Assembly (NCBI GenBank): GCA_026705465.1
Contig: JAPPAP010000025.1
Span: forward strand, 186,001 to 250,000
Length of the DNA: 64,000 bases
Reading direction: 5' to 3'
DNA from: a bacterium
GTDB taxonomy: Bacteria > Actinomycetota > Acidimicrobiia > Acidimicrobiales > Bin134
The notes under the pieces were generated by a model. It made no database searches. It had not been told where the DNA came from and saw nothing but the letters and a program-made list of their open reading frames with translations. Both the position numbers and the translations under genes were made by a program. Positions 23,581-32,162 of this stretch are shown piece by piece (positions within the stretch are counted from its first letter, which is position 1; each line of letters begins with the position of its first letter).

Positions 23581-23648
23581 TCTCCGGCTGTAGCGGGCTT
23601 CACCAGTGGCTAGACGAATTCGACTCTGGTGTGGTGGACGGCCCCCGG

Positions 23649-23654
23649 TAGCCT
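23649..23654 (+). promoter_or_regulatory. -10 box TAGCCT, leaderless glyS start
   Basis: TAGCCT ends seven bases before ATG 23662 and excludes the upstream in-frame ATG at 23629. Confidence 0.55.
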
Positions 23655-23661
23655 GCGGGCC

Positions 23662-24999
23662 ATGAGCGGTGGCGACGTCGACCGGGGTGCGGGCGACGAC
23701 CTGATGGACAAGGTGGTGAATCTCTGCAAGCGGCGGGGGTTCGTGTACCAGTCAGCCGAGATCTACGGCGGCTTCCGCAGCGCCTACGACTATGGCCCAT
23801 TGGGCGTGCTGCTGCTTCGCAACGTGAAGGACGCCTGGTGGCGGACCATGGTCCAACTCCGCACCGATGTGGTCGGCCTGGACGCCTCAATCCTGTCGCC
23901 TCCCGAGGTGTGGGAGGCGTCGGGACACTTGACCAACTTCACCGACCCCTTAGTGGACTGCCGCAACTGCGGTATGCGCTTTCGGGCAGATCAGTTGGAA
24001 GACCCCGACGTCTGCCCGAGCTGCGGGGCCCGGGGCCAGTTCACCGAGGCCCGGGAATTCAACCTGATGTTCCGCACCCAGGCTGGCCCGGTGGCTGGGG
24101 CCGGAGCTGACGTGTACCTGCGGCCCGAGACCGCCCAGGGCATGTTCATCAACTTCGCCAACGTGCTGAATACCGTGCGCAACAAGCCGCCGTTCGGCAT
24201 CGCCCAGATCGGCAAGTCGTTCCGCAACGAGATCACCCCGGGCAACTTCATATTCCGCACCCGGGAATTCGAGCAGATGGAAATGGAGTTCTTCGTGCCT
24301 CCCGACGAGGCCACCAAGTGGTTCGAGTACTGGTGTGGTGCTCGGATGGACTGGTACACCGAGCTGGGCATCCCCGCCGACAAGCTGAGGCTGCGGCCCC
24401 ACGATGCCGACGAGCTCAGCCACTACTCGGCTGGCACCGCCGATGTGGAGTACCTGTTCCCCTGGGGGTGGGGCGAGCTGGAGGGCATCGCCAACCGCAC
24501 CGACTACGACCTCACCCAGCACGCCCAGCATTCCGGCGTTGACTTGGAGTATTACGACCAACAGGCCGACGAGCGCTACCGGCCCCACGTGATCGAGCCG
24601 GCCGCCGGCGCTACCCGAACGATGATGGCGTTTCTGCTGGCGGCCTTTGACACTGAGGAGGTGCGAGGGGAGACCCGAACGGTGCTGCGGCTGCACCCCC
24701 GGCTGGCGCCCTACAAGGCGGCGGTTCTGCCCCTGTCGAAGAAGCCCGAGCTCCAGTCGGTGTGCGAGGAGGTGCTGGGTTTGCTCCAGCCCCGGTGGAT
24801 GACCGACTACGACGTGACCCAGTCGATTGGTCGCCGCTATCGCCGCCAAGACGAGATCGGTACCCCCTACTGCGTGACCGTGGACTTTGACTCTCTGGAA
24901 GACAGGGCAGTCACCGTGCGGGACCGTGACACGATGGACCAGGACCGGGTGCCCATCGAAGGGCTGGCCGAGCACTTGGACGCCAAGCTCGGTCTGTGA
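23662..24999 (+). CDS. glyQS: Glycyl-tRNA synthetase (dimeric class II type)
   Basis: This 445-residue protein starts at ATG 23662. Class II synthetase motifs are present: [25 protein letters not shown] at the N-terminus (within two lines of text), [38 protein letters not shown], and the C-terminal anticodon domain from about residue 340. A four-cysteine zinc site, CRNCGMRF...CPSCGARG, sits near residues 95-120. It charges tRNA-Gly in the cytosol. It is the eukaryote/archaea-like single-chain form usual in actinobacteria. The PPDK-like gene starts 10 bp after its stop. Confidence 0.95.
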
Positions 25000-25009
25000 G
25001 ATAGACACA

Positions 25010-26530
25010 GTGACCAGCCCGGTTGTTGCCGCGGTGCGAGCCGTCGAGCGCGGCGAAATGAAACAGACTGAGGCGGTGATGGGAGTTTCCCCTGGAGACG
25101 TCGAGGACCTGCTTCACGCCAAGATGACTGACGACTCGTCGGCGCCCGTGGTCGCCCATGGAGTGGCCGCCTCACCGGGGGCGGCTTCAGGCCGGGTGTG
25201 TCTCACGGTGGACGCCGTGCTGGATGCCGAGGACGAGGGTGTTCCCGCCGTCTTTGTCCGGCCGTTCACCAGTCCCGCCGACGAGGTGGCCATGTCGGCC
25301 GCCGCGGCCATCCTTACCGCCAAGGGGGGTATGGCCAGCCACGCGGCGGTGATCGCCCGGGGCTGGGGCATTCCTGCTGTGGTGGGAGTAGAGACGTTGG
25401 CGATCGACGTGGCGGCTGGGGCGGCCCGGTTGGGCGACGTGGAACTGCGCGATGGCGACCCCATTACTGTGGACGGCTCGGCGGGCACAGTCATGCTGGG
25501 GGCCGCTGAGGTGGACGAAATGGCGATCCCCGACGAGCTGTTCACGTTGTTGGGGTGGGCCGACGAACTGCGAGACGGGCGTTTGGCGGTGCGGGCCAAC
25601 GCCGACGACGCGTTCTCTGCCCAATTGGCCCGGCAGTTTGGGGCGACCGGGGTGGGGCTGTGCCGCACTGAGCACATGTTCTTGGGGGAGCGGCTGCCAT
25701 TGATCCAGCGGGCCATCACCGACGGCGGGCAGGCCGCCCTCGATGCGCTGGCTGAAGCTCAAGTTGAGGATCTGGTGGAGCTTTTGGCAGTCATGGACGG
25801 TTTGCCGGTGACCGTCCGCCTGCTCGATCCGCCCCTGCACGAGTTTCTGCCCGACCATCCTGAGCTGGTCGAGGAGAATCCCATGCTCGGAGTGAGGGGC
25901 GCTCGGCTGGGGGTGTTGCGCCCCGAGCTGTATCGGGCCCAGGCCAAAGCGGTGGCCGAAGCCGCGGCCCGCCGGGTGGCGGCCGGGGGCGACCCACAGG
26001 TGCAGATCATGGTGCCGTTGGTGGTGGGCGGCCCCGAGCTGGCCCATATTCGGGCTGCGGTGGCCGACGAGCTGGCGACTTTCGAGAATCGTCTGGGAGG
26101 CAGGAGCATTCCCGTTGGGGCCATGATCGAGACACCTCGCTCGGCGCTGGCTGCGGCCGAGATCGCGGTGTGGGCCGACTTTATGTCGGTGGGCACCAAC
26201 GACTTGACCCAAATGACCTTCGGATTCTGCCGTGACGACATCGAGGCCAAGATCATGCGTCCCTACATTGATCATGGCCTGTTGGAGGCCAATCCGTTTG
26301 AGACCCTGGATGAGGTGGGCGTGGGCCGGCTGGTGGCCGATGCGGTAGTTGCGGCTCGCTCCGCCCGGCCGGGCATTGAGATCGGGGTGTGCGGCGAGCA
26401 CGGCGGCGACCCGGCCTCCATCGCCATCTTGGCTGCCGCCGGCGTGGACTGCGTGTCCTGTTCTCCGCACCGGGTTCCGGTGGCTCGGTTGGCGGCCGCG
26501 CAAGCGGTTCTCGCCTCCGAACCTGGCTAG
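25010..26530 (+). CDS. Pyruvate phosphate dikinase-like protein lacking the ATP-grasp domain
   Basis: This 506-residue frame starts at GTG 25010. Residues about 1-40 match the linker before the swivel domain of PPDK. The phosphohistidine domain follows with AILTAKGGMASHAAVIARGWG near residue 105 (His in MASHA). The C-terminal TIM barrel has GLCRTEHMF, FMSVGTNDLTQMTFGF and the catalytic-cysteine motif GVCGEHGGDP near residue 460. The roughly 340-residue ATP-binding domain of complete PPDK is absent, and the glyS gene occupies that DNA. It could act on phosphoenolpyruvate/pyruvate with a phosphoryl partner encoded elsewhere, or have a regulatory role. Complete PPDK is excluded by length. Confidence 0.85.
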   Translation: MTSPVVAAVRAVERGEMKQTEAVMGVSPGDVEDLLHAKMTDDSSAPVVAHGVAASPGAASGRVCLTVDAVLDAEDEGVPAVFVRPFTSPADEVAMSAAAAILTAKGGMASHAAVIARGWGIPAVVGVETLAIDVAAGAARLGDVELRDGDPITVDGSAGTVMLGAAEVDEMAIPDELFTLLGWADELRDGRLAVRANADDAFSAQLARQFGATGVGLCRTEHMFLGERLPLIQRAITDGGQAALDALAEAQVEDLVELLAVMDGLPVTVRLLDPPLHEFLPDHPELVEENPMLGVRGARLGVLRPELYRAQAKAVAEAAARRVAAGGDPQVQIMVPLVVGGPELAHIRAAVADELATFENRLGGRSIPVGAMIETPRSALAAAEIAVWADFMSVGTNDLTQMTFGFCRDDIEAKIMRPYIDHGLLEANPFETLDEVGVGRLVADAVVAARSARPGIEIGVCGEHGGDPASIAILAAAGVDCVSCSPHRVPVARLAAAQAVLASEPG

Positions 26531-26571: not shown

Positions 26572-28440
26572 GTGGGCATCCACGAGGAAGACGTGGCCCG
26601 GGTGAGAGAAGCGACGGACATCGTCGCGGTCATCAGCGAATACGTGCAGCTGAAGCGGGTCGGGCGCCGCTGGCAGGGACTATGTCCGTTCCATGCCGAG
26701 AAGACCCCGTCGTTCTCGGTGAACGCTGAGATGGGCGTGTACCACTGCTTCGGCTGCAAGGCCAGCGGCGACGCCATCACCTTCCTCCGAGAGGTGGAGC
26801 ACGCCGATTTCCCCGAGGCGGTGGAGCGCCTGGCCGGGCGGTCGGGGATTGCACTGCGCTACACCTCGCCCGGCGAAGGGGCCGACCGCCAAAAGCGAGG
26901 CAAGCTCACCGAGGCCTTGGAGCAGGCGGTTGAGTGGTATCACCAGCGGCTGTTGACCGCGCCCGACGCTGGCCCCGCCCGGGGCTATCTACGTCAGCGG
27001 GGTTACGACGGCGACATCGTGCGCCAGTACAAACTGGGATGGGCTCCCGACGAATGGGACGCCCTGGCGATGGACTTGGGGGTGGGTACCGATAGCGCCA
27101 TGTCCGCCCAGGTGTTCTCTGACGCCGGTCTGGGATTCCGCAACAAGGGTGGGCGCATCCAGGACAGCTTCCGGGCTCGGCTGTTGTTTCCCATTTTCGA
27201 CCCCAGCGGCAAGCCGGTGGGCTTCGGCGGGCGGGTTTTGCCCGGCGGGGAGGGGCCCAAGTACAAGAACTCGGTGGATAACGCCGTCTACCGCAAATCG
27301 CGAGTGTTGTACGGGCTCAATTGGGCCAAGCAGGACATCGTGAACGCGGGCGAGGTGATCGTGTGCGAGGGCTACACCGATGTGATCGGTTTTGCTCAGG
27401 CTGGCATCGCTCGGGCGGTGGCCACCTGCGGCACCGCCCTCACCGAGGACCACGTACGGGTGCTGCGCCGGTTCGCCTCCCGCATCGTGCTGGCCTTCGA
27501 CGCCGACTCCGCCGGCCAGACGGCGGCCGAGCGCTTCTCTCAGTGGGAACACGCTTTCGAGTTGGAGGTGGCGGTGGCCGATCTGCCTCCGGGGGCTGAT
27601 CCCGGCGACTTGGCCCAGAGCGATCCGGAGCGGCTGGCAGCTGTGGTCTCTGACGCGGTGGACTTCATGGACTTCCGCATCAACCGGGTGCTGGGCGGGG
27701 CCGACCTCTCGACGGTCAAGGGCCAAGTGCGGGCAGGGGAGCGGGCGGCCCAGCTGGTGGCCGAACATCCCAACCCCGAGATCAGAGACAAGTATCTGGT
27801 GGAGATTTCTGACCGCTGCTCGGTGAGCCCCGATCATCTGCGGGGGGTGGTGGCCGACGCCCGTCGCCGTGGTCCGAGTCGGCCCCCTCGCCCCGGGGTC
27901 GACGACGCGCCCCATCCGGCCGACGTGGGCTTCGGCCCAAGCGGTGACCGCGAGGATGCTTCAGCCTTTGAGCACAACGGGAGCAGCGATGGTCCTCCAC
28001 CCAACAATGTGGAGCGCCAGGTGCTGTGGTTGGCGGCCAATGAACCGAGTGCCGTGTGGCCGGAAATCGTTCCTGAGATGTTCGACTATCCCCTCTATCG
28101 AGGTGGGTTTGAGGCCCTACTGGAATATCCGGACATGGAAGCTCTGCTGGCCGAAGCCGAGACGGGGCTCACTGCCATGATGCGTGAGCTGCTGGTAGAC
28201 GATGACGAGGGATTGCGGGGCAGCACCCACCGCCAACAAGTAGTTATGGCGATCCTGCTGTTCGAGTCGGCTCAGCGAGAACTGGCCTATCTGGAGCGCC
28301 AAGCACGCACCGGCTCAGCCGACGACGAACTGCTGCGCCGAGTGGCCAGCTTGAAGACGGCGATGGACAAACTCCGGGAGTCGGAGTGGGATCCCGAGCA
28401 GGCTCGCGCCCTGCTTGAGCTGCTGCGGCCCAGCACCTAG
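26572..28440 (+). CDS. dnaG: DNA primase
   Basis: This 622-residue protein starts at GTG 26572. The CHC2 zinc-binding domain has Cys38, His41, Cys59 and Cys62 (LCPFHAEKTPSFSV...YHCFGCKASGD). The catalytic core includes YRKSRVLYGLNWAK, a TOPRIM domain with VIVCEGYTDVIGF and VLAFDADSAGQ, and a helical C-terminal domain that should bind the DnaB helicase. It makes RNA primers for replication. rpoD, often next to dnaG, is not downstream here. Instead the gene is followed by the regulatory region of the anchored-protein/two-component module. Confidence 0.95.
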   Translation: MGIHEEDVARVREATDIVAVISEYVQLKRVGRRWQGLCPFHAEKTPSFSVNAEMGVYHCFGCKASGDAITFLREVEHADFPEAVERLAGRSGIALRYTSPGEGADRQKRGKLTEALEQAVEWYHQRLLTAPDAGPARGYLRQRGYDGDIVRQYKLGWAPDEWDALAMDLGVGTDSAMSAQVFSDAGLGFRNKGGRIQDSFRARLLFPIFDPSGKPVGFGGRVLPGGEGPKYKNSVDNAVYRKSRVLYGLNWAKQDIVNAGEVIVCEGYTDVIGFAQAGIARAVATCGTALTEDHVRVLRRFASRIVLAFDADSAGQTAAERFSQWEHAFELEVAVADLPPGADPGDLAQSDPERLAAVVSDAVDFMDFRINRVLGGADLSTVKGQVRAGERAAQLVAEHPNPEIRDKYLVEISDRCSVSPDHLRGVVADARRRGPSRPPRPGVDDAPHPADVGFGPSGDREDASAFEHNGSSDGPPPNNVERQVLWLAANEPSAVWPEIVPEMFDYPLYRGGFEALLEYPDMEALLAEAETGLTAMMRELLVDDDEGLRGSTHRQQVVMAILLFESAQRELAYLERQARTGSADDELLRRVASLKTAMDKLRESEWDPEQARALLELLRPST

Positions 28441-28546: not shown

Positions 28547-28585
28547 TGTGACCATCAGGTTCTGTGAGGAGCAGAACCGGTCACA
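28547..28585 (+). promoter_or_regulatory. Leader hairpin directly before the ribosome-binding site
   Basis: TGTGACC (28547-28553) and GGTTCTG (28558-28564) pair with CAGAACC (28572-28578) and GGTCACA (28579-28585). All 14 pairs are perfect, with a four-base bulge (ATCA) and a seven-base loop. The AAGGAGA ribosome-binding site starts three or four bases after the stem. The structure could control message stability or translation, or act as a DNA-level operator. Confidence 0.55.
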
Positions 28586-28601
28586 TCAAAGGAGATGGAA
28601 A

Positions 28602-30080
28602 ATGACCATCGACACCAGACCAGAGAACCAAGAGACCCAAGGAGACAAGAACAAAGTTCTCGGCTTCTTCGGCAAATCAAAGAAGCGGGTGGCCGCCGCG
28701 GCTGGTGCCGTCGTGCTGGCCATTGCCCTGGTGGCCGGTGCGTGCGCCGGCGGCGAGTCCGGCGATGGTGCCGGTCATGAAGGCAGCCGTGAAGGCGCCG
28801 GGGAACACTCAGGAAGCGGCGAAGGCGGCGGGATGGGTGAAGCGGCGGAAGCCGGTCACGGCGGCGAAGCTGGCCGCGGCGAAGCAGCCGAGGGCGGCAA
28901 CGTCACCCTGCTGACACCCGACCAGACCTACGACGAAACCATCGGAGGCGCCCGTCTCCAGCTGGCCTTCGACCCGGCGGCCAACGCCTTCGTGGGCACG
29001 GCGGAGAACACCACCAACCAGACTCTGACCCGAGTCCGAGTGGAGGTCCACCTATCCAACGGGACTGAGCTTGGCCCTACCACGCCAACCGATCTGCCAC
29101 CCGGCCAATCCCTCCGCCTGACACTGCCGTCGACGGCAGCTCCATTCGACACTTGGAGCGCCCACGTCGAAGTCGGATCGGGCGAAGCCGGTGAAGGCTC
29201 CGGCGGCGAGGGCAGCGAGGGTGCGGGCCACGAAAGTGGTGGCAGCGAAGGCCGCGGCGAGGGACCCGAGGGGACCGAAACCGGCCGCCAGGCGGCTAGG
29301 CCGGGCTCGGCTACCTATCTGGCCAGCACTGGCGTGAGCCGGGGAGTCATGTCGTCCCAGGTGCTCGACATCGGTGACTCCTACGCGGGGAATCTGAATG
29401 ACCTGGAGCTGGCCATCACCTACGACGAGCAGAACGACCGCTTCGTGGCTCGAGTCAAGAATGAGGCCACAGTGCCAGTCTGTGACACGTCGGTCAGGGT
29501 GGTGACCGATGGCCGATCCGCTCCCCAAGGTGTCCTGATTCCCGCCCTGGACGTGGCAGGCCGAGCGGACTTCACCATTGATGCCCCCCAATCCCGGTTC
29601 AGCACGTGGCAAGCCGAAACCGAGACCTTCACCTGTACCTCTGTTGCCAGCCACCCCGGCGAAGGCGCGGAAGGCGGCAGCGGTGAAACCGGAGGCGAGG
29701 GCCCCGGCCACGAAAGCGGCGGCGAGGGAGCGGGTCATGAAGGCGGTGGCAGCGAAGGCGGTGGCGAAGGCGGCGAGGAGACTAGCCCGTCCACACCCAT
29801 CAGCCAGCCCGTGTCCGGCACGTTCAACAACCTGGACTACCGCGTTGCCTATGACCGAGCCACCAACTCCTTCATGGCGACGGTGACCAACAACACCAGC
29901 CAAACGGTGTGCGCCTCCCGATTGGAGATCCACATGGGCGCTCAGGGACAGGTCATCGAACTGGGACCCACCATCGGCGTCGACCTGCGACCCGGCGAGT
30001 CCATCGATGTTGTGCTCTCGGCCGACCCGGTGGTTCCCGACACCTACAGCATCCACCCGGAATCCTCCCCATGCCCCTGA
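28602..30080 (+). CDS. Anchored extracytoplasmic protein with three repeated modules and Gly/Glu/His-rich linkers
   Basis: This 492-residue protein starts at ATG 28602, just after AAGGAGATGG. A cytosolic Lys-rich stretch is followed by a hydrophobic segment (residues 30-47) and Cys48 in VAGAC, so it is a likely lipoprotein or a membrane-anchored protein. Three related beta-rich modules lie at about 100-192, 235-346 and 405-492. They share L.F/Y.YD...N.F.A...N.T..T...R.E.H, ELGPT, DL.PG.S and F.TW elements. Linkers at 50-99, 193-234 and 351-397 are rich in Gly, Glu, Ser and His (GHESGG repeats). Modules 2 and 3 have extra cysteines. No enzyme motif is seen. It probably partners with the two-component system encoded next. 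Its last 12 residues recur at the end of the kinase. Confidence 0.8.
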   Translation: MTIDTRPENQETQGDKNKVLGFFGKSKKRVAAAAGAVVLAIALVAGACAGGESGDGAGHEGSREGAGEHSGSGEGGGMGEAAEAGHGGEAGRGEAAEGGNVTLLTPDQTYDETIGGARLQLAFDPAANAFVGTAENTTNQTLTRVRVEVHLSNGTELGPTTPTDLPPGQSLRLTLPSTAAPFDTWSAHVEVGSGEAGEGSGGEGSEGAGHESGGSEGRGEGPEGTETGRQAARPGSATYLASTGVSRGVMSSQVLDIGDSYAGNLNDLELAITYDEQNDRFVARVKNEATVPVCDTSVRVVTDGRSAPQGVLIPALDVAGRADFTIDAPQSRFSTWQAETETFTCTSVASHPGEGAEGGSGETGGEGPGHESGGEGAGHEGGGSEGGGEGGEETSPSTPISQPVSGTFNNLDYRVAYDRATNSFMATVTNNTSQTVCASRLEIHMGAQGQVIELGPTIGVDLRPGESIDVVLSADPVVPDTYSIHPESSPCP

Positions 30081-30267: not shown

Positions 30268-30939
30268 ATGCGCGTTCTGCTGGTAGAAGACGAAGAACGG
30301 CTGGCCGAAACGATCCGCGACGGGCTCAGCGAGCACGGCGTGACCGCCGACATCGAGCACGACGGCCGCGAAGGGCTGTTTCGCGCCAAGGTGGGCAGCT
30401 ATGACGTCATTGTGTTGGACATCATGCTGCCCGGGCTCAACGGCTATCAGATCTGCCGCAAACTGCGCGAGGCCGAGATCTGGACCCCGATTCTGATGCT
30501 TACGGCCAAGGACGGGGAGTGGGACGAAGCCGAGGCCCTCGACACTGGCGCCGATGACTATCTGTCCAAGCCGTTCTCGTTCGTCGTGTTGTTGGCTAGG
30601 TTGCGAGCGCTGGCCCGCCGCCCATCAGTGGAGCGGCCCGTCGTGCTCCAGGTAGGCGACCTGGTGTTTGATGTCGCCTCGTCGGCCGTGCGCCGGGGAG
30701 AGACGGCGATCGATTTGACCCGCACCGAAATGCAGGTGTTGGAAGTGCTCATGCGCGGGGGCGACACACCGGTGTCCAAGCAGCAGATTTATGATCGGGT
30801 TTGGGGATTCGACGCCGATGTCGATCCCAAGATCGTCGAGGTCTACATGCGCTATTTGAGACGCAAGATCGACGAGCCTTTCGACGTGAGCACCATCAAG
30901 AATCAGCGGGGTGTCGGCTACCGGATCGTGGCGGCATGA
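30268..30939 (+). CDS. OmpR/PhoB-family response regulator
   Basis: This 223-residue protein starts at ATG 30268. The receiver domain has VEDEERLAE, phospho-acceptor Asp51 in VIVLDIMLPGLNGY, and the conserved lysine at Lys101 (YLSKPFSF). The winged-helix output domain covers about residues 128-223 (RTEMQVLEVLMRG...SKQQIYDRVWGF, then VEVYMRYLRRKID and GVGYRIV). It should bind direct-repeat DNA when phosphorylated by the kinase encoded next, whose ATG overlaps this stop. The operator candidate before the anchored-protein gene is a plausible target. Confidence 0.95.
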   Translation: MRVLLVEDEERLAETIRDGLSEHGVTADIEHDGREGLFRAKVGSYDVIVLDIMLPGLNGYQICRKLREAEIWTPILMLTAKDGEWDEAEALDTGADDYLSKPFSFVVLLARLRALARRPSVERPVVLQVGDLVFDVASSAVRRGETAIDLTRTEMQVLEVLMRGGDTPVSKQQIYDRVWGFDADVDPKIVEVYMRYLRRKIDEPFDVSTIKNQRGVGYRIVAA

Positions 30940-32162
30940 AGCTTGGCCGGTTGCGGTCGGTGCGGTGGAAGACCACGGTGGCGGCCACTCTGCTGACGGC
31001 GCTCGTGCTGGGGTTGGCATCGTATTTCATCGTCCGGCTGGTGGAGCGCGATCTGGAGGGCAACGCCAGAAGCGCGCTCAGCAGCGCGTTGGAATCGGCC
31101 TCCCACTCCGTCAGCGGCGAAGGCAGTTCCAGCGGCGAAGGCGGTGAGGGCTCGGGCGAATCAGGATCGCCTGGCGATGCTCAGCAGCGTGCCTTGGCCG
31201 ATGCTTCCGTCCGGGAGGTAGAAGCCGGGGTTGATGCCGCGTCGAATGCGCTGCTGATCATCGTTCCCGTGGTAGTGGTGGCGCTTGGTCTCGCCATCTG
31301 GTGGACAGTTGGGCGGGCCCTGCGGCCGGTGCGTGACATCTCTGCCCAAGTCACTGAGATCTCAGGGTCTACCCTCGATGAGAGGGTTCCGGTGCCGGCT
31401 AGCGAGGACGAGATCGCTGAGCTTGCGGCTCTGATGAACGAGATGCTCGACCGGCTTCAGTCCTCATCGGAGCGACAGCGCGCCTTCGTAGCCGACGCTA
31501 GCCATGAACTTCGCTCCCCGCTCTCGACGATTATGGCAGCGGCCGAGATTGCGTCGGTCAGCCCCGACCCGATCAAGCTCCAAAAGCTGGCCGAGACGGT
31601 GTCGGGCGAGGCTCAGCGCATGCAGTTGCTGGTTGCCAATCTGCTGGATCTGGCCCGGCTCGAAGAGGATCGCTTGGAACTCGACACCAACGAGGTTGAC
31701 GTTGCCGCTGTGTGCCGTGACGCGGTTGATCGCTTCGAAGAAGAAGTGACCGCAATCTCATTGAATTGCCCGGCAGTGGCGCGAGCCGATGGCGTGGCCT
31801 CGCAGATCGAGCAGGTGGTGTTCAATTTGGTGGATAACGCAGTCATTCATGCCGCGGGTCGCGTGGTGGTAACCGTGACGGCTAAGGACACCAGAGTTTT
31901 GATCGCGGTTGAGGACGACGGACCGGGAATTAGCCCTGAGGACCGCGAGCGCATCTTTGAACGCTTCGTTCGCCTCGATGGCAGCCGAACCAGAATGACC
32001 GGCGGCATTGGCATTGGCCTCTCCCTCGTCAAGGCCATCGTCGACCGCCACCGGGGTGCCATTCAGGTGGGCGACTCCGCCGAACTCGGCGGTGCCCGCT
32101 TCGAGGTCACCCTCCAAGCCGCCACCTACAGCATCCACCCGGAATCCTCACCGTGCCCATAG
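30936..32162 (+). CDS. Membrane histidine kinase with Gly/Ser/Glu-rich sensor loop and an added tail
   Basis: This 408-residue protein starts at ATG 30936, overlapping the regulator stop (ATGA). Membrane segments lie at about 12-34 and 104-125. Between them is a 70-residue extracytoplasmic loop with a Ser/Gly/Glu-rich stretch (60-80) like the linkers of the anchored protein. HAMP follows at about 126-180. The phospho-acceptor is His190 in FVADASHELRSPLS. The ATPase domain has NLVDNAV, DDGPGISPEDRERIFERF and GIGIGLSLVKAIV. Normal kinases of this type end near FEVTL. Here 12 extra residues, TYSIHPESSPCP, are identical to the end of the anchored protein. Confidence 0.93.
   Translation: MKLGRLRSVRWKTTVAATLLTALVLGLASYFIVRLVERDLEGNARSALSSALESASHSVSGEGSSSGEGGEGSGESGSPGDAQQRALADASVREVEAGVDAASNALLIIVPVVVVALGLAIWWTVGRALRPVRDISAQVTEISGSTLDERVPVPASEDEIAELAALMNEMLDRLQSSSERQRAFVADASHELRSPLSTIMAAAEIASVSPDPIKLQKLAETVSGEAQRMQLLVANLLDLARLEEDRLELDTNEVDVAAVCRDAVDRFEEEVTAISLNCPAVARADGVASQIEQVVFNLVDNAVIHAAGRVVVTVTAKDTRVLIAVEDDGPGISPEDRERIFERFVRLDGSRTRMTGGIGIGLSLVKAIVDRHRGAIQVGDSAELGGARFEVTLQAATYSIHPESSPCP

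What the first reader, a model, noticed from the sequence alone, without database searches (positions are those of the whole stretch)
25010..26530. Pyruvate phosphate dikinase without its ATP-grasp half
The swivel histidine and the PEP/pyruvate barrel with catalytic cysteine are intact, but the first domain is absent and glyS ends only 10 bp upstream. The protein cannot phosphorylate itself from ATP. A separately encoded ATP-grasp partner, or phosphotransfer from another protein (as in PTS enzyme I), would be a new arrangement.
Basis: partly seen in the sequence, partly recalled or inferred. Interest (0 to 1): 0.5.

Follow-up and report, generated by a model that had tools for sequence, protein, structure and literature searches.

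The report
Dikinase missing its ATP-binding half
A gene in a group of actinobacteria encodes a metabolic enzyme that has lost the half that uses ATP but kept, under selection, the half that takes phosphate from phosphoenolpyruvate, which suggests that an old enzyme has been turned to another use.

Summary
Window 25010-26530 (+) encodes 506 aa: linker, phosphohistidine swivel and PEP/pyruvate barrel of pyruvate phosphate dikinase (PPDK), without an ATP-grasp domain, between glyS and dnaG. It shows no sign of decay: 15 of 21 genus relatives keep it, dN/dS is 0.14 (dnaG 0.16), and seven catalytic residues of the PEP half-reaction are unchanged in 31 of 31 short or degenerate forms. Related families have full-length PPDK after glyS, so the ATP half was probably lost in place, at least twice. 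The simplest reading is a protein charged by PEP itself, the mirror image of VadK (ATP-grasp and swivel kept, barrel lost). Its acceptor is unknown. A winged-helix protein family, fused to one short form and adjacent to VadK-like genes in other Actinomycetota, is a candidate by indirect evidence. New variant of a known kind; no activity has been measured.

The parts
25010..26530 (+). ATP-grasp-less PPDK-derived gene, 506 aa, GTG start, TAG stop
25010..25144 (+). linker region (residues 1-45), least constrained part (dN/dS 0.275)
25145..25504 (+). phosphohistidine swivel domain (residues 46-165, PF00391 at 80-159)
25277..25285 (+). residues 90-92 (ADE), aligned to (E/D)-D-(V/L/I) of full-length PPDK; Ala at 90 and Glu at 92 in 27 of 31 short or degenerate forms
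25340..25342 (+). His111, the phosphoryl acceptor (His455 in Clostridium symbiosum numbering, recalled; offset 344)
   Evidence: 31 of 31 short and 30 of 30 full-length sequences
25547..26518 (+). PEP/pyruvate-binding barrel (residues 180-503, PF02896 at 191-499)
26129..26131 (+). Glu374 (E745 of PPDK; role as metal ligand recalled)
26198..26203 (+). Asn397-Asp398 (N768-D769 of PPDK, numbering recalled)
26390..26392 (+). Cys461 (C831 of PPDK; role as general acid/base recalled)
23629..24999 (+). glyS, upstream neighbour (context)
26572..28440 (+). dnaG, downstream neighbour (context)

Best explanation
The gene descends from a full-length PPDK that stood after glyS and lost its ATP-grasp half in place. 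The protein keeps the second PPDK half-reaction: its swivel His111 takes phosphate from PEP at the barrel, giving pyruvate and phosphohistidine, reversibly and without ATP. It should no longer make PEP from ATP or ATP from PEP. It most likely works as a PEP-charged phosphohistidine protein that passes the phosphate on, or signals its phosphorylation state: the mirror image of VadK, which keeps the ATP half. Shown here: the domain loss, the unchanged PEP active site, purifying selection, no PPDK-type ATP-grasp or HPr partner found, repeated loss. Inferred: charging by PEP in the cell, and use for phosphotransfer or regulation. The acceptor is not identified; a winged-helix protein family is the best candidate, by indirect evidence.
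For: Domains. Same gene place as full-length PPDK in related families: glyS upstream in 17 of 20 and dnaG downstream in 13 of 20 fetched stretches. H111, R219, R270, E374, N397, D398 and C461 unchanged in 31 of 31 short or degenerate forms and 30 of 30 full-length ones; two rows (G104, CorioC) were left out of the full-length set as frame-broken or contig-cut. dN/dS median 0.138 over 105 of 105 pairs, against glyS 0.077 and dnaG 0.158. One clade for all short forms rejected (p-AU 2e-5); G233 lacks the ATP half that its same-genus relative G287 has. AlphaFold2 model pLDDT 91.9, with the swivel placed as in 5jvl_C (rmsd 1.7 A) and 2r82 (2.2 A), not as in 1kbl (10.8 A); 2R82 has the swivel alongside the PEP domain (PMC5371819, passages). 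No PPDK-type ATP-grasp, no HPr; pyruvate kinase is present, so the gene is not the only PEP-pyruvate enzyme. PPDK's two partial reactions are independent and spatially separate (PMC5556012, passages).
Against: No activity was measured. The direct neighbours, glyS and dnaG, suggest no acceptor. Three genus members with small genomes have lost it (G003, G016; G009 keeps a scar), so it is dispensable there. Some conserved barrel positions do change: R377 in 3 of 31 (all of family f20), N290 in G329, H277 and H464 in G316; f20 branches are long. The main short clade has weak support (73 and 67 of 100). Conserved residues could serve another reaction of the same barrel. PF01326 does match somewhere in 11 of the 30 short-form genomes searched with it, though not with the PPDK-specific profile beyond 28 bits. 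The genomes are mostly draft assemblies.
Confidence: 0.6

Rival explanations
1. PEP/pyruvate sensor or slow PEP phosphatase: His111 is charged by PEP, but there is no dedicated acceptor; the charged state itself is read out by binding, or the phosphate is lost to water.
For: PEP site unchanged; direct neighbours are glyS and dnaG; no HPr; VadK is proposed to act by binding methylcitrate-cycle enzymes (PMC13400623, section 16).
Against: Cannot be told from phosphotransfer by sequence; the extra winged-helix-type domain on the short form of G312 argues for a partner.
Confidence: 0.2
2. Split PPDK: an unrecognised ATP-grasp protein elsewhere docks to the swivel and restores the full reaction, as in two-component dikinases.
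For: Two-component dikinases exist (HpeHI, PMC12167813, abstract). PF01326 matches some protein in 11 of 30 short-form genomes, not all of which I scanned.
Against: 0 PF01326 matches in the own genome, with 13 of 14 control genomes ringing; PPDK ATP-grasp profile negative in 28 of 31; Ala replaces the E/D at residue 90 (434 of PPDK) in 27 of 31 short forms against 0 of 30 full-length, a residue that I recall, from no call, as part of the ATP-grasp docking face; the lone ATP-grasp of G352 is followed by its own PRK08296-type partner.
Confidence: 0.07
3. Reductive relic: a truncated gene on its way out, without function.
For: Lost or reduced to a scar in three small genomes.
Against: dN/dS 0.14, conserved start codon, unchanged catalytic residues across several families, the same half kept after separate losses.
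Confidence: 0.08
4. Enzyme I of a phosphotransferase system: PEP to His to HPr.
For: Same chemistry in swivel and barrel; structural match to enzyme I 2hwg, TM 0.61 over the query. G352 and G312 do have HPr matches.
Against: No HPr in the own genome or in 29 of 31; PTS_I_fam 129 bits against a cut-off of 342.
Confidence: 0.03

Closest known systems
Pyruvate phosphate dikinase (PPDK, TIGR01828; 5jvj, 1kbl)
   Same: Linker, swivel and barrel, seven PEP-side catalytic residues, gene place after glyS
   Different: No ATP-grasp domain; scores below the equivalog cut-off; should not use ATP
VadK (Rv1127c; PMC13400623: abstract, sections 8, 16, 17 and passages seen)
   Same: PPDK-derived, one active site lost, swivel His kept; the paper reports His phosphorylation, no PPDK flux, and possibly repeated origin
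   Different: VadK keeps the ATP-grasp and lost the barrel; the window protein is the opposite half and would be charged by PEP
Enzyme I of the PTS
   Same: Swivel His charged by PEP at a homologous barrel
   Different: Far below the family cut-off; no HPr in the genome
Two-component dikinases: HpeHI (PMC12167813, abstract seen) and phenylphosphate synthase (recalled)
   Same: ATP-grasp separated from the swivel
   Different: Those have a separate ATP-grasp subunit and another substrate domain; here no such subunit is found

Membership tests
PPDK | N-terminal ATP-grasp domain | tested here: not met
PPDK | swivel domain with phosphoryl-accepting His | tested here: met
PPDK | PEP/pyruvate barrel with catalytic Cys and metal ligands | tested here: met
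PPDK | score over the TIGR01828 cut-off | tested here: not met
   522.2 against 843.45 bits
PPDK | ATP + Pi + pyruvate to PEP + AMP + PPi activity | not testable with these tools
   needs protein; the nucleotide site is absent
PTS enzyme I | score over the PTS_I_fam cut-off | tested here: not met
   129.1 against 341.7 bits
PTS enzyme I | HPr partner in the genome | tested here: not met
   PF00381: 0 in G000; 3 of 41 genomes in all
VadK | ATP-grasp plus swivel without barrel | tested here: not met
   opposite domain set
Two-component dikinase | separately encoded ATP-grasp subunit | tested here: not met
   none of PPDK type in the own genome

The most novel reading that the evidence does not exclude
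PPDK has been broken both ways in Actinomycetota into stand-alone phosphohistidine signalling proteins, one charged by ATP (VadK-like) and one by PEP (this form), and both act with members of one winged-helix protein family whose invariant histidines could receive the phosphate. The window's protein would then be the PEP-reading arm of an ATP-independent, PTS-like regulatory relay in bacteria in which no HPr is found.
Probability: 0.2. Interest if true: 0.8.

Novelty: new variant of a known kind. Interest (0 to 1): 0.55.

Why it matters
A core metabolic dikinase that more than once sheds its ATP half while its PEP half stays under selection shows a second route, opposite to VadK, by which PPDK becomes something other than a PPDK. 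If the protein is charged by PEP in the cell, it would let bacteria without HPr read or use the PEP/pyruvate ratio through phosphohistidine. It also warns that genomes annotated with PPDK from this domain set may lack the reaction, so PPDK-based gluconeogenesis or ATP synthesis should not be inferred for these lineages.

Tried and rejected
Split partner: PF01326 and a PPDK-specific ATP-grasp profile were searched; a PPDK-type partner was not found. PF01326 itself matches in 7 of the 15 genus relatives with the short form and in 4 of 14 short or degenerate genomes from other families (G352, G329, G147, G316); G312 was searched only with the profile. Six matching frames were scanned with Pfam: G018, 1274 aa with fn3 and cadherin matches; G016 and G008, which lack the short form, frames of 1151 and 971 aa with no other domain; G021, G005 and the second match of G002, a weak ATP-grasp match plus their own swivel. 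The first match of G002 and those of G004, G006, G015, G329, G147 and G316, and two of three in G352, were not scanned. The third in G352, a lone ATP-grasp gene, is followed by a PRK08296-type gene.

PTS route: HPr search, rejected for the own genome. Decay: dN/dS and residue counts speak against it.

Regulatory Thr: the residue two before the His is Ala in 29 of 31 short forms, but Val in 23, Thr in 6 and Ala in 1 of 30 full-length ones, so loss of Thr is not a mark of truncation.

A script with a tree under a mixture model timed out without output; LG+G4 was used instead. The number of losses beyond two is open: G352 inside the main short clade was not rejected (p-AU 0.30).

Homology of the winged-helix family to Rv1126c, VadK's operon partner, rests on gene order and recall; no sequence of Rv1126c was at hand. 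Paper searches listed no ATP-grasp-less PPDK, but searches showed 15 of 451 and 5 of 14,810 papers.

Full report
What is there. The gene at 25010-26530 (+) encodes 506 aa. Pfam sees PF00391 (residues 80-159) and PF02896 (191-499) and nothing else at E 0.001. The PPDK equivalog TIGR01828 matches from its position 345 on, at 522 bits, below its cut-off of 843. Against maize PPDK the match starts after the ATP-grasp domain. glyS ends at 24999 and dnaG begins at 26572. The closest named records are Acidimicrobiia metagenome-assembled genomes, at 83% among them Candidatus Poriferisocius aerobius; a record very near the window's own may be left out there.

It is conserved and selected. Of 21 genus relatives, 15 hold it at 83-89% identity. 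Of the six without it, G003 and G016 have glyS within about 150 bases of dnaG and no match between, G009 keeps a scar matching residues 476-502, G008 has only a piece of glyS, and G017 and G019 show no glyS, so that place may be unassembled there. All 16 genus sequences, the window's included, begin with GTG at the same place. Median dN/dS is 0.138 over 105 of 105 pairs (the window and 14 named loci), between glyS (0.077) and dnaG (0.158); the swivel is at 0.092, the barrel at 0.124, the linker at 0.275.

The ATP half was lost in place. In 20 fetched stretches with full-length PPDK from other families of the order, glyS lies upstream in 17 and dnaG downstream in 13; in G036 and G040 neither was seen in the stretch. 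Short forms with glyS directly upstream occur also in G033, G037, G047 and, from the class survey, in G352, G385, G218, G255, G371, G329, G271 and G147; G337 and G316 have dnaG but no glyS match, G233 and G312 neither. The class survey covered 395 genomes; its listing was cut, and I took up short frames from the rows shown, so the number is a lower bound. A phylum survey of 342 genomes showed, in its visible rows, only G000 and G147 as clear short forms; other frames under 700 aa (G538, G594, G670, G681, G685) were not examined.

Independent losses. A tree of 63 sequences puts most short forms in one clade with weak support (73 of 100), and G233, G352 and G312 elsewhere. In a set of 49 (dropped: 11 further genus members, G104, CorioC, CorioB; clade support 67) one clade for all short forms is rejected (p-AU 2e-5); joining G352 to the main clade is not (p-AU 0.30). 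G233 and G287 are of one genus and share the upstream DNA, but G233 lacks the ATP-grasp stretch; it is one draft genome. So at least two losses, by the test. G316 carries a longer N-terminus (750-aa frame) with no PF01326 match, which looks like a decayed ATP-grasp domain.

The PEP site is unchanged. In 31 of 31 short or degenerate forms and 30 of 30 full-length ones the residues aligned with H455, R561, R617, E745, N768, D769 and C831 of PPDK are the same (numbering and roles recalled). Other conserved positions do vary in a few short forms: R377 (3), N290 (1), H277 (1), H464 (1). Residue 90 (434 in PPDK) is E or D in 30 of 30 full-length forms and Ala in 27 of 31 short ones; residue 92 is V, L or I in 30 of 30 against Glu in 27 of 31. 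I recall residue 434 as part of the face that docks to the ATP-grasp domain; no paper that I looked at here confirms it. The exceptions at residue 90 are G233, G352, G312 and G316. The predicted structure (pLDDT 91.9, pTM 0.92) has the swivel placed as in 5jvl_C and 2r82 and not as in 1kbl and 1dik, that is, at the PEP domain (PMC5371819, passages).

No partner of the expected kinds. PF01326: 0 in the own genome, while 13 of 14 control genomes ring. A profile of 14 PPDK ATP-grasp halves finds the two full-length controls at 673 and 587 bits, nothing in 28 of 31 short-form genomes, and partial matches of at most 28 bits in G352, G147 and G329. PF01326 does match some protein in 11 of 30 short-form genomes searched with it: 7 of 15 genus relatives and 4 of 14 others. 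Those that I scanned are a large protein with fn3 and cadherin matches (G018), three with a weak ATP-grasp match and their own swivel (G021, G005, G002) and a lone ATP-grasp with a PRK08296-type neighbour (G352); the rest were not scanned. HPr: absent in 29 of 31, the own genome included; present in G352 and G312, and in full-length G053. Pyruvate kinase is present in 40 of 41 genomes.

A candidate acceptor or partner. In G312 the short form carries an extra C-terminal domain of about 230 aa. Relatives exist in 25 of 27 Acidimicrobiia tested at E 0.01, G312 itself counted; in the own genome the gene lies directly before a DapA-like gene and one gene after a DapB-like one (names are my reading of the sequences). 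G033, which has a short form, lacks it, as does G053. In the phylum, 27 of 346 genomes match at E 1e-12. At the 16 loci from outside the class, the gene lies beside a swivel-domain gene in 10: in 8 with ATP-grasp and swivel and no barrel match, VadK-like, and in 2 with a swivel match only; 6 have no such neighbour, though two of these show a weak swivel match over 1 kb away. Three of three neighbours scanned pass the cut-off of NF004531. Of five named plasmid records opened, three list a pyruvate, phosphate dikinase directly beside the gene (Streptomyces atratus, Rhodococcus sp. ZPP, and Rhodococcus sp. LW-XY12, where the gene is the end of an AMP-binding protein), one a PEP-utilizing enzyme with one gene between (R. 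pyridinivorans), and one has no annotation there. VadK's authors co-expressed it with its operon partner Rv1126c and saw better solubility (PMC13400623, passages); whether Rv1126c is of this family was not tested. In 36 of 36 aligned members two histidines are invariant. The model (pLDDT 95.3) is a winged helix followed by long helices, with no PDB match at E 0.001 or better. Among 24 order genomes in both phylum surveys, the family was found in 10 of 18 with a PPDK-type gene and 0 of 6 without; the genomes are related, so this is weak. The link to the window's own protein is indirect: the two genes are not neighbours in its genome.

How it most likely works. The PEP half-reaction should run alone, since PPDK's two partial reactions are independent and spatially separate (PMC5556012, passages). 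His111 would be charged by PEP and discharged to pyruvate or to an acceptor. That this serves phosphotransfer or regulation is inference. The nearest precedent is VadK, which keeps the other half and is reported to phosphorylate itself on His and to regulate the methylcitrate cycle (PMC13400623, abstract and sections 8, 16, 17); its authors suggest that VadK may have arisen from PPDK several times.

Novelty. Paper searches listed no report of an ATP-grasp-less PPDK; they cover open-licence PubMed Central papers, and the listings were short parts of the papers found. The finding is a new variant of a known kind.

Noticed in passing
window 28548-30080 and 30801-32162 (+); repeats at 30037-30085/32119-32167 and 30094-30161/32177-32244: Two nearby ORFs end in the same tail TYSIHPESSPCP, because a direct repeat covers both 3' ends and runs on downstream (86% and 82% identity).
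   Followed up: partly
L082, L083, L084, L085 (genus members G016, G018, G015, G002): A PPDK_N (ATP-grasp) match sits in frames of 1150 aa or more; the one in L083 also has fibronectin type III and cadherin matches, and L084/L085 begin with what looks to me like a signal peptide.
   Followed up: partly
L151:3388-5637 (G316): PPDK-like protein with a long N-terminus that does not match PF01326: an apparently decayed ATP-grasp domain still attached.
   Followed up: partly
L098 (G009), between glyS and dnaG: Deletion scar: a start region and the C-terminal residues of the short PPDK remain.
   Followed up: yes
L245:2450-4621 (Rhodococcus sp. LW-XY12 plasmid pLW3): An AMP-binding protein whose C-terminal part matches the winged-helix family, next to a pyruvate, phosphate dikinase gene.
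   Followed up: no
L190:3802-6770 (G352): Lone ATP-grasp gene followed by a PRK08296-type gene with a C-terminal swivel match: a two-component dikinase of the HpeHI kind by domain layout.
   Followed up: partly
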